From: Methanospirillum stamsii
GTDB taxonomy: Archaea > Halobacteriota > Methanomicrobia > Methanomicrobiales > Methanospirillaceae
DNA: 64,000 bases
Direction of reading: 5' to 3'
Assembly (NCBI RefSeq): GCF_003173335.1
Contig: NZ_QGMZ01000001.1
Coordinates: 1-64,000, forward strand
In this document: piece after piece, positions 56,395 through 59,238 of the stretch
How positions within the stretch are numbered: the first letter of the stretch is position 1
Layout of the letters: each line of letters opens with the position of its first letter
Notes under the pieces: model-generated
What the model was told of the DNA's origin: nothing
Seen by the model: the letters and a program-made list of their open reading frames with translations, nothing else
Databases searched by the model: none
Made by a program: the position numbers and the translations under genes

Positions 56395-56676
56395 TTATTT
56401 AATATATTCCGGATCGAAAAAGAAATTACACGTACAATGTCCGGCCTGTTCAAGCTCATGCACATGAAATGCACATGGGCAGACAAGAACCTTGTCTTTT
56501 TCTTTATCTCCGGATCGAATACGACACGGGCAGTACCGTTCCCCATACTTTTCTGACATACGGGAAAGACCTTTTATCACTGCATTTCGTTGTTTTGCAT
56601 CAGGATTCAGGACCCATCCCTTCGACCGGGAATACTCGAGAGCCCAGTTTTTAATTTCTTCTTCAGTTTCTGCCAC
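56395..56676 (-). CDS. ftrB: Ferredoxin:thioredoxin reductase, catalytic beta chain
   Basis: The 93-residue protein carries the characteristic cysteine set: RYCPCR (CPC), VLVCPCAF (second CPC) and HCTCNF (CxC). These bind a [4Fe-4S] cluster and form the redox disulfide. The enzyme passes electrons from ferredoxin to thioredoxin. Methanogen versions can work without the variable chain known in plants. The length is normal. It lies alone, about 120 bp downstream of the CofG-PurC gene on the same strand. Confidence 0.85.
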   Translation of the reverse strand: MAETEEEIKNWALEYSRSKGWVLNPDAKQRNAVIKGLSRMSEKYGERYCPCRIRSGDKEKDKVLVCPCAFHVHELEQAGHCTCNFFFDPEYIK

Positions 56677-56798: not shown

Positions 56799-58496
56799 TT
56801 ATACCCCGGCTCCCGGAATGATTCGGTTAAGCACATTCCGGTATGCAGTGATAACATCTCCTTTGTCAAACCGGTACACATCCTTGTCAAATGATTCACC
56901 GGTCTTCTTATCCCAGAGCCGCATGGAGTCCATGCTTACCTCATCACCAAGGAAAATCTTTCCCCCTGCTTTTCCAAACTCAAGCTTAAAGTCTACAAGA
57001 CGGATTCCACACTCATCAAAAAACCGGGATAACACAGTATTTACCCGAAGTGCCATCTCCTTCACCTGTTTGAGTTCATCAGCATTTAGAATATGAAGCA
57101 CCTGGATTAGATCATCATTGATCATCGGGTCTCCCCGTTCATCATCCTTGTAATCTGTGGTCACTATAGGCCAGTCAAGAACGGTCCCTTCAGTTACCGG
57201 ATATTTCTTTGTCATTGAACCGGCAGCAACATTCCGGACGATAACCTCAAGAGGAATCATCGTAAGACGCCGGACAATCATGGTATCGGGGGAGTTCATC
57301 CGGATATAATGAGTAGGGATACCCTCCGACTCAAGCATCTTCATAAAAAACTCGGATGCGGTAGCGTTCAGTTTTCCCTTATCAGTAAACTGGTCGTGCT
57401 TGACTCCATTGAATGCAGTCATGTCATTTCTGAAGACGACAATCAATTCATCAGGGTTTTCGCTTGCAAACACTGATTTTGCTTTCCCCTTGTACAGGGG
57501 TTCTGCCGGTATCACGAATGTACCTCTCGTATGTATTTTGTTCTCAAGACAGATGATACGATCCCCAAGTCTTTCATGAAACCATCCTTTCCGGATATAC
57601 TGAGGATAGATACACAGACGTTCACGCAGTGTATATCCGGCGGTTAACGTTACCAGTTCATCAAAAGCAGGCCATGGGTGCTCAGGATTTACATAGTCAA
57701 TTGTCACCGGGGAAATCCCGCCAAGATCAGTAACTCCACATGGCAGAATTTCTGCAGCATCTGCAAGATTGGGAGGAATCTGAATCGCGATATCAGAAGG
57801 AAGAATTTCTTTTGCCATCCGAACCGTATCCTGCATATCCTGAAGGGTTGCACCCGGAAAAGAACTCATATCTGTTCCGGGTTTTGGACAGAAATTCTGG
57901 ATAATAATCTCCTGAATATGTCCATACTTCCGGTGCAGGGCAGCAATAACCTCTAACGATTCCCTCCGGTCAGCGATAGTCTCCCCGATTCCAAGTAAAA
58001 TTCCGGTAGTAAACGGAATTTTCAGTCTTCCGGCATCCTCTATCATGGCAATCCGCCGGCTTGGGACTTTTCCCGGACAGTTCCGGTGAGCAGGAATATC
58101 TGCGGTTGTCTCCAGCATCAGACCCATACTGGCATTCACATCAGACAGATACCTCATCTCATCAGCGGTCATAATTCCGGCATTGGTATGAGGGAGAAGA
58201 CCCAGACGAAGGGCCTCTTCAGCCATGTTATGACAGTATTCAAGGATGGATGAGTACCCGTACCTCTCAAGAAAAGGCATAAATCCTGCCACTTCTTCAG
58301 GATGTTCTCCGAAAGTGAAGAGTGCTTCCGTGCACCCGGCCTCAGCTCCGCGCTTTAGTATTCTCATAACCTCTTCAGGTGAAAGAACACACCCCTCTCC
58401 GGGCGGGCGACGGAAGATACAGTACCCGCACGCATTTCTGCAGACAAAGGTAAGCGGCAGAAAAACATTCCGCGAATACGTGATTACCGGTGACAT
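56799..58496 (-). CDS. cofG-purC: CofG-PurC fusion: FO synthase radical SAM subunit and SAICAR synthetase
   Basis: One uninterrupted 565-codon frame. Residues 1 to about 322 are CofG: VCRNACGYCIF holds the radical-SAM cysteines C19, C23 and C26, and QNFCPKPGTDM and CIYPQYIRKGWF are family-like. Residues from about 333 are PurC: LYKGKAKSVF, MTAFNGVKHDQF, EVIVRNVAAGSM, VDFKLEFG and LGDEVSMDSMRLW. CofG with CofH makes FO for coenzyme F420; PurC makes SAICAR in purine synthesis. Both parts look full length. No stop or start divides them, although an internal start could also make PurC alone. Divergent cofC is 79 bp away. Confidence 0.9.
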   Translation of the reverse strand: MSPVITYSRNVFLPLTFVCRNACGYCIFRRPPGEGCVLSPEEVMRILKRGAEAGCTEALFTFGEHPEEVAGFMPFLERYGYSSILEYCHNMAEEALRLGLLPHTNAGIMTADEMRYLSDVNASMGLMLETTADIPAHRNCPGKVPSRRIAMIEDAGRLKIPFTTGILLGIGETIADRRESLEVIAALHRKYGHIQEIIIQNFCPKPGTDMSSFPGATLQDMQDTVRMAKEILPSDIAIQIPPNLADAAEILPCGVTDLGGISPVTIDYVNPEHPWPAFDELVTLTAGYTLRERLCIYPQYIRKGWFHERLGDRIICLENKIHTRGTFVIPAEPLYKGKAKSVFASENPDELIVVFRNDMTAFNGVKHDQFTDKGKLNATASEFFMKMLESEGIPTHYIRMNSPDTMIVRRLTMIPLEVIVRNVAAGSMTKKYPVTEGTVLDWPIVTTDYKDDERGDPMINDDLIQVLHILNADELKQVKEMALRVNTVLSRFFDECGIRLVDFKLEFGKAGGKIFLGDEVSMDSMRLWDKKTGESFDKDVYRFDKGDVITAYRNVLNRIIPGAGV

Positions 58497-58575
58497 CGTA
58501 CCAGTGCTTTATGCATGGGATCCATATGGTGGTTTTGAGTCAGACAGTTGATGTCGATCCTTTTTTCCATTCCTG

Positions 58576-59238
58576 ATGGCAACGTTTGTTTCAAAGATGC
58601 GAATACCTGTAGTTATACCATATAAACCAATAAACCCAAAGACCCGTCTTTCCTGTATCCTGACAGATGAAGAACGACAGAACTTTGCATATATGATGCT
58701 CCGCGATGTCGTTGATGCGGTGAAAGATGCCGGGTGCTTTCCGCTCATCCTCGCAACCGCACCAGTAGAGCTTGATGATGTACCGGTTCAGATCCTTGAA
58801 GAAGGGCTCAATGAAACTATAAACGGATTTTGTGAGGGAAATGATGACCCTCTTGCTATTGTCATGGCAGATCTTGCTCTTGCAGACCGGTCATCTATCA
58901 TCTCCCTTCTCACTTCAGGAGGGGATCTCGCGATTGCTCCCGGCCGGGGAGGAGGAACCAACGCTATCTATGTCAGGTCAGCAAAGACATTCAAGGCCCA
59001 GTATTATGGAATGAGTTATGAAAAACATGTAAAATATGGTAATGACAACAGCCTGATGATAAAAATTATCGATTCATTCAGGCTGTACTGTGATATTGAT
59101 GAGCAGGACGATCTCATCGAGGTGTTTATCCATAATCAGGGCCATTCCAGGGACTGGCTTGTCGGGCATGGTTTTGAAATTGCCATGAAAAAAAGCAGAA
59201 TCGGGGTAAAAAGGCCCGGTTTTTCTCTTTCAGACTGA
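58576..59238 (+). CDS. cofC: 2-Phospho-L-lactate guanylyltransferase
   Basis: The 220-residue protein reads RIPVVIPYKPINPKTRLSCI, the start of the CofC nucleotidyltransferase fold, followed by AIVMADLALADRSSI (metal-binding Asp) and AIAPGRGGGTNAIYVRS. CofC activates 2-phospho-L-lactate with GTP for the lactyl part of F420. Divergence from cofG, which makes the FO part, supports the call. ATG at codon 8 (58597, MRIPVVIPY) is a likely alternative start. It converges with the DUF296 gene. Confidence 0.88.
   Translation: MATFVSKMRIPVVIPYKPINPKTRLSCILTDEERQNFAYMMLRDVVDAVKDAGCFPLILATAPVELDDVPVQILEEGLNETINGFCEGNDDPLAIVMADLALADRSSIISLLTSGGDLAIAPGRGGGTNAIYVRSAKTFKAQYYGMSYEKHVKYGNDNSLMIKIIDSFRLYCDIDEQDDLIEVFIHNQGHSRDWLVGHGFEIAMKKSRIGVKRPGFSLSD

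What the first reader, a model, noticed from the sequence alone, without database searches (positions are those of the whole stretch)
56799..58496. CofG and PurC fused in one frame
The fusion links an F420-chromophore radical SAM enzyme to purine synthesis with no stop between. Both halves keep their catalytic motifs. FO derives from a GTP-descended precursor, so a link between purine flow and F420 is conceivable. I do not know of a report describing this bifunctional protein.
Basis: partly seen in the sequence, partly recalled or inferred. Interest (0 to 1): 0.65.

Follow-up and report, generated by a model that had tools for sequence, protein, structure and literature searches.

The report
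CofG–PurC fusion with internal PurC start
In one branch of the methane-making archaeon Methanospirillum, the gene for a cofactor F420 enzyme (CofG) has run together with its operon neighbour, a purine-synthesis gene (PurC); the fusion was already reported in M. hungatei in 2011, but sequence conservation indicates that the old PurC start signal is still kept inside the fused gene, so it probably makes both the fused protein and free PurC.

Summary
Window 56799-58496 (-) is one open frame of 565 codons: full-length CofG (TIGR03550, 451 bits) followed by full-length PurC (TIGR00081, 237.5 bits). Each is the only copy in the genome. It is not an assembly error: the same open fusion occurs in 7 of the 12 Methanospirillum genomes held, which form one clade. 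The sister clade has cofG and purC as separate genes that overlap out of frame (ATGA). The fusion is not unreported: Brown et al. 2011 (PMC3261824) described it as Mhun_1253 and found it in no other archaeon. New here: (i) it is clade-wide and derives from an ATGA overlap, by a net +1 nt between the Shine-Dalgarno motif and the start codon; (ii) a second, phylogenetically separate fusion lies in another genus (G173, one MAG); (iii) the ancestral PurC start (GAGGT, 6 nt, GTG) persists. Eleven consecutive codons over it have invariant third positions in all seven species (next longest run 4; dS 0 there against about 1.4 elsewhere), while amino acids vary. Most likely the gene makes two products: a 63-kDa CofG-PurC and a 27-kDa free PurC. 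No metabolic channelling is needed to explain the fusion. Dual expression is inferred, not measured.

The parts
56799..58496 (-). Fused CofG-PurC open reading frame, 565 aa plus stop, 63.4 kDa
   Evidence: open in 7 of 12 Methanospirillum genomes
57537..58496 (-). CofG part (residues 1-320), 7,8-didemethyl-8-hydroxy-5-deazariboflavin synthase radical-SAM subunit
   Evidence: TIGR03550 451 bits, NF004884 436 bits
58419..58442 (-). CX3CX2C radical-SAM cluster motif (residues 19-26, CRNACGYC)
   Evidence: sequence; Pfam Radical_SAM 58 bits
57504..57536 (-). Codons 321-331: 11 consecutive codons with invariant third position in 7 fused species, spanning the PurC translation initiation region
   Evidence: dS 0.0 against about 1.4 in both flanking domains
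57522..57526 (-). Shine-Dalgarno-like GAGGT, complementary to the 16S 3' end GGATCACCTCCT
   Evidence: all 7 fused genes; 16S tail
57513..57515 (-). Internal GTG (residue V328), predicted start of free PurC; its GTGA is the counterpart of the ATGA overlap of split relatives
   Evidence: invariant in 7 of 7
56799..57515 (-). PurC part (SAICAR synthetase), 238 aa, 27.0 kDa if started at the internal GTG
   Evidence: TIGR00081 237.5 bits, SAICAR_synt 263 bits; closest solved relative 2yzl/2z02
58576..59238 (+). cofC (2-phospho-L-lactate guanylyltransferase), divergent neighbour 79 nt from the cofG start; genomic context, F420 pathway
   Evidence: TIGR03552 168.9 bits against cut-off 105

Best explanation
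This is a natural gene fusion of two operon neighbours, clade-wide in part of Methanospirillum, in which the downstream gene has kept its own translation start. Ancestrally cofG and purC formed a conserved operon with an out-of-frame ATGA overlap and a Shine-Dalgarno motif in the cofG tail. A net one-nucleotide insertion between that motif and the purC start brought cofG into the purC frame and removed the cofG stop. Ribosomes starting at cofG now make a 63-kDa CofG-PurC protein, which is the only evident source of CofG. Ribosomes starting at the retained GAGGT/GTG inside the gene make free 27-kDa PurC. Free PurC would let purine flux exceed the smaller need for FO and could co-assemble with the fused subunits. 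Shown: the fusion, single copy, clade distribution, the mutational step by comparison, the retained element and its nucleotide-level constraint. Inferred: actual internal initiation, stoichiometry, co-assembly and the selective reason.
For: Fusion is open in 7 of 12 congeners; the sister clade is split with ATGA overlap. Fused Methanospirillum form one clade, support 100/99, as do the four split ones, 100/100. Split 'GAGAGGTATGCT ATGA' (GAGAGGAATGCA ATGA in one genome) against fused 'GAGAGGTACATYC GTGA' shows a net +1 nt with motif and start retained. All 7 fused genes keep GAGGT, 6 nt, GTG; 16S ends GGATCACCTCCT. Third positions are invariant at 11 consecutive codons (next run 4; 0 of 20,000 permutations reached 10); fourfold sites are identical in 104/104 comparisons against 49% elsewhere; dS 0.0 against 1.4, while dN there (0.119) is not lower than in CofG (0.089) or PurC (0.075). 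The first 9 purC codons are also third-position invariant in the split species. The internal GTG lies where split relatives start PurC. AlphaFold2: two confident domains, with only residues 326-330 under pLDDT 50.
Against: There is no ribosome profiling, N-terminal proteomics or blot. Shine-Dalgarno use varies in archaea, and many window genes show no clear motif. The invariant stretch begins about three codons upstream of GAGGT and runs three codons past GTG, slightly wider than motif plus start. Seven species are a small sample, and the junction was examined because it was the junction. No unusual local openness of the RNA was seen around the GTG.
Confidence: 0.78

Rival explanations
1. Only the 63-kDa bifunctional CofG-PurC protein is made. 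The junction conservation has another cause (a regulatory site, or chance), and the fusion is either neutral or serves co-regulation or channelling between purine and F420 synthesis.
For: The open frame is kept in 7 species although single-step routes to a stop exist (e.g. AGA to TGA at codon 324). Both domains are intact and confidently folded. Brown et al. suggested a regulatory domain or co-regulation.
Against: dS of 0 over a good start signal at the homologous PurC start position, with amino acids free to vary, is not expected if that signal were dead. No conserved RNA fold was seen. CofG and PurC share no intermediate (established pathways).
Confidence: 0.15
2. A programmed +1 frameshift at the retained GTGA, stimulated by the upstream GAGGT, ends some CofG molecules at the old TGA. 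The gene then yields free CofG as well as the fusion.
For: GTGA is invariant in 7 of 7, and a Shine-Dalgarno motif lies 3 nt upstream of the putative shift codon, as in prfB (own knowledge).
Against: There is no slippery codon (TCC to CCG or TTC to TCG re-pair poorly) and no slow A-site codon in the zero frame. The element is explained by the start signal alone.
Confidence: 0.04
3. Sequencing or assembly error that lost a stop or frame.
For: Related genomes with a single base fewer at this place are indeed split.
Against: Seven species, including two single-contig genomes, share it; also published for M. hungatei Mhun_1253.
Confidence: 0.01

Closest known systems
Mhun_1253 of Methanospirillum hungatei (Brown et al. 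2011, PMC3261824)
   Same: Same CofG-PurC fusion; the window gene is the counterpart in another Methanospirillum species (89% identical to G150, a single-contig congener of 3,544,738 bp that I take to be JF-1, and to L064, labelled M. hungatei M59).
   Different: The paper treated it as unique to M. hungatei and as one protein; it did not discuss the overlap origin, the internal start or the clade distribution.
Internal in-frame translation of Cas11b from cas8b in Haloferax (PMC11899642, 2025)
   Same: Works alike: one archaeal gene, an internal start with a Shine-Dalgarno-like motif, and a C-terminal part made as a separate protein; [quoted passage not shown]
   Different: Here two unrelated metabolic enzymes are fused and the nested product is a complete enzyme; no experiment yet.
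FbiC / CofGH fusion (FO synthase of actinobacteria; NCBIfam NF006687)
   Same: CofG fused to another enzyme.
   Different: FbiC joins the two FO-synthase halves; here CofH is separate and the partner is PurC. The NF006687 cut-off is not met (360 against 1018 bits).
PAICS (PurC-PurE fusion of animals)
   Same: PurC in a fused protein.
   Different: The partner there is PurE and PurC lies at the N-terminus.

Membership tests
CofG (TIGR03550) | Full-length match above the curated cut-off | tested here: met
   451 bits against 213.35, profile 1-321/322
CofG (TIGR03550) | Radical-SAM CX3CX2C motif | tested here: met
   CRNACGYC at residues 19-26
CofG (TIGR03550) | FO synthesis together with CofH, encoded in the same genome | tested here: inconclusive
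   Two CofH genes above cut-off elsewhere in the genome; activity not testable here
PurC / SAICAR synthetase (TIGR00081, PF01259) | Full-length match above the cut-off | tested here: met
   237.5 against 189.9 bits; Pfam 263 bits
PurC / SAICAR synthetase (TIGR00081, PF01259) | Substrate-contacting residues (GKAK lysines, RN-AAGS, DFKLE, SR-WD arginine, C-terminal arginine) | tested here: met
   Motifs present in the sequence and in alignment to solved archaeal PurC; residues as listed in PMC3261824, matched by motif
PurC / SAICAR synthetase (TIGR00081, PF01259) | SAICAR synthetase activity | not testable with these tools
   Needs an assay; only purC in the genome
CofG-PurC fusion (Mhun_1253 type) | Both complete enzymes in one open frame, orthologous locus | tested here: met
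Gene with internal in-frame translation start | Start signal at the domain boundary conserved at nucleotide level beyond protein constraint | tested here: met
Gene with internal in-frame translation start | Separate C-terminal product detected and abolished by start-codon mutation | not testable with these tools
   needs blot or N-terminal proteomics

The most novel reading that the evidence does not exclude
A fused metabolic gene in an archaeon encodes two proteins, the CofG-PurC fusion and nested free PurC, with the nested start kept under strong nucleotide-level selection since the fusion arose from a translation-coupling overlap; PurC oligomers would mix fused and free subunits and so set the CofG:PurC ratio.
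Probability: 0.6. Interest if true: 0.55.

Novelty: new variant of a known kind. Interest (0 to 1): 0.42.

Why it matters
The fusion itself is known. What would matter is a natural evolutionary series from overlapping neighbours to a fused gene that keeps the inner start. It shows that a fusion need not mean one product, and it gives a clean test of internal in-frame initiation in archaea, where experimental proof was claimed as a first only in 2025 (PMC11899642). It also warns that annotation shows only the long protein, and that 'fusion implies functional link' is weak here because the operon and its overlap already explain it.

Tried and rejected
A conserved RNA fold at the junction: no consistent structure across the seven sequences, and no unusual openness around the GTG. 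An internal promoter: no conserved TATA-like stretch about 25 nt upstream of the GTG, where codons 313-320 vary. A single origin of the Methanospirillum and G173 fusions: rejected by the AU test, p = 0.0002, with the caveat that G173 sits on a long branch. Further in-frame hits in other Methanomicrobiales: all carry a stop between the genes, except G173. A phylum sample of 393 genomes showed no other open fusion at E <= 1e-125. Literature on Mhun_1253 beyond the 2011 paper: none found in the library. A survey of Shine-Dalgarno motifs before window genes was not informative.

Full report
Observation. The stretch 56799-58496 on the minus strand is one open frame of 565 codons, ATG to TAA, with no stop at the junction. 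The first part is CofG (TIGR03550, 451 bits; residues 6-314 match almost the whole profile) and the second is PurC (TIGR00081, 237.5 bits; Pfam SAICAR_synt 263 bits over residues 334-558). The nearest solved relatives of the second part are archaeal SAICAR synthetases. The radical-SAM motif CRNACGYC and the usual PurC substrate motifs are present. The genome (3.74 Mb, 99.9% complete) has no second purC. It has no second cofG above the curated cut-off; the two weaker CofG-like hits are CofH genes. The calculated mass is 63.4 kDa.

Real, and clade-wide. The organism is a Methanospirillum: the named relatives found by the fusion protein are Methanospirillum or Methanomicrobiales MAGs. Of 12 genomes of this genus, seven, including the window's own, carry the same uninterrupted fusion at 83-89% identity. 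Four carry separate genes, and one contig is cut before the junction. In a tree of concatenated CofG and PurC, the fused genes form one clade (support 100/99) and the split ones the sister clade (100/100). Across all 232 Methanomicrobiales genomes held, the only other uninterrupted case is G173 from another genus of the same family. It does not group with the Methanospirillum fusions (AU test p = 0.0002), so it looks like a second event; it rests on one 78%-complete MAG. A sample of 393 genomes of the phylum showed none further at E <= 1e-125.

Already reported. Brown and co-workers (Biol Direct 2011, PMC3261824) noted that the predicted PurC of M. hungatei, Mhun_1253, has an N-terminal CofG-like domain. 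They found the fusion in no other archaeon, noted radical-SAM genes just before purC in several others, and proposed a regulatory domain or co-regulation. No other paper in the library mentions the locus tag.

How it arose. In every locus fetched with enough flank, purC follows cofG on the same strand, with 30-271 nt between the aligned parts, so this is an old operon. In split Methanospirillum the junction reads GAGAGG(T/A)ATGC(T/A)ATGA: the cofG stop TGA overlaps the purC ATG, and GAGAGG sits just upstream. In the fused species it reads GAGAGGTACATYCGTGA, or GAGAGGTTCATCCGTGA in one. The spacer has six bases instead of five, and the start is GTG. The one-base difference puts cofG in the purC frame; neither enzyme lost more than the last couple of residues.

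What is kept. The 16S rRNA of this genome ends GGATCACCTCCT, which pairs with GAGGT. In all seven fused genes GAGGT, six bases and GTG are preserved at the place where split relatives start PurC. Synonymous sites in this gene are near saturation between species: fourfold sites agree in 49% of comparisons, median dS is about 1.4 in both domains, and only 21% of third positions are invariant. Yet codons 321-331, which span the motif and the GTG, have eleven invariant third positions in a row. The next longest run is four, and 20,000 permutations never exceeded nine. Fourfold sites there agree in 104 of 104 comparisons, and dS is zero. The amino acids in the same stretch vary (dN 0.119, against 0.089 in CofG and 0.075 in PurC). 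The constraint is therefore on the nucleotides rather than the protein. A retained start signal explains it; a conserved RNA fold or promoter was looked for and not seen. The same start region is conserved in the split species.

Mechanism. CofG has no stop of its own, so CofG should be made as the 63-kDa fusion (barring frameshifting or proteolysis). Internal initiation at the GTG (57513-57515) would add free 27-kDa PurC. A plausible reason is that purine synthesis needs far more enzyme turnover than FO synthesis, so the inner start keeps the amounts independent (inference). An AlphaFold2 model on 34 sequences gives two confident domains (mean pLDDT 87, pTM 0.59). The only segment below 50 is residues 326-330, at the junction, consistent with two domains on a short hinge and no predicted fixed interface. 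That both products are made has not been measured.

Comparison. As an anatomy, the nearest case is Mhun_1253 itself.

Verdict. The fused frame is confirmed and real, but known since 2011. The added value is the clade distribution, the step by which it arose, a probable second fusion, and strong comparative evidence that the inner start is still used.

Noticed in passing
L082 (G173, genus g37): junction near bases 2446-2493: A second uninterrupted CofG-PurC fusion in another genus, apparently independent, with GAGG, 6 nt, ATG at the junction (possible internal start as well); one MAG only.
   Followed up: partly
window 58497-58575: cofC and cofG-purC are divergently arranged with a 79-nt spacer, so a shared divergent promoter region is likely.
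   Followed up: no
window 57512-57515: The GTGA tetranucleotide, counterpart of the ATGA stop/start overlap of split relatives, is invariant in all fused genes; a +1 shift there would end CofG at its old stop.
   Followed up: partly
G000:C34:22035-23066 and G000:C10:57339-58364: The genome has two CofH-type genes above the curated cut-off (492 and 410 bits) but only one CofG.
   Followed up: no
window 56395-56676 (-): The gene just downstream of purC is a ferredoxin-thioredoxin reductase beta-chain-like protein (FeThRed_B), also weakly similar to an FtrB double-selenoprotein family below its cut-off.
   Followed up: no
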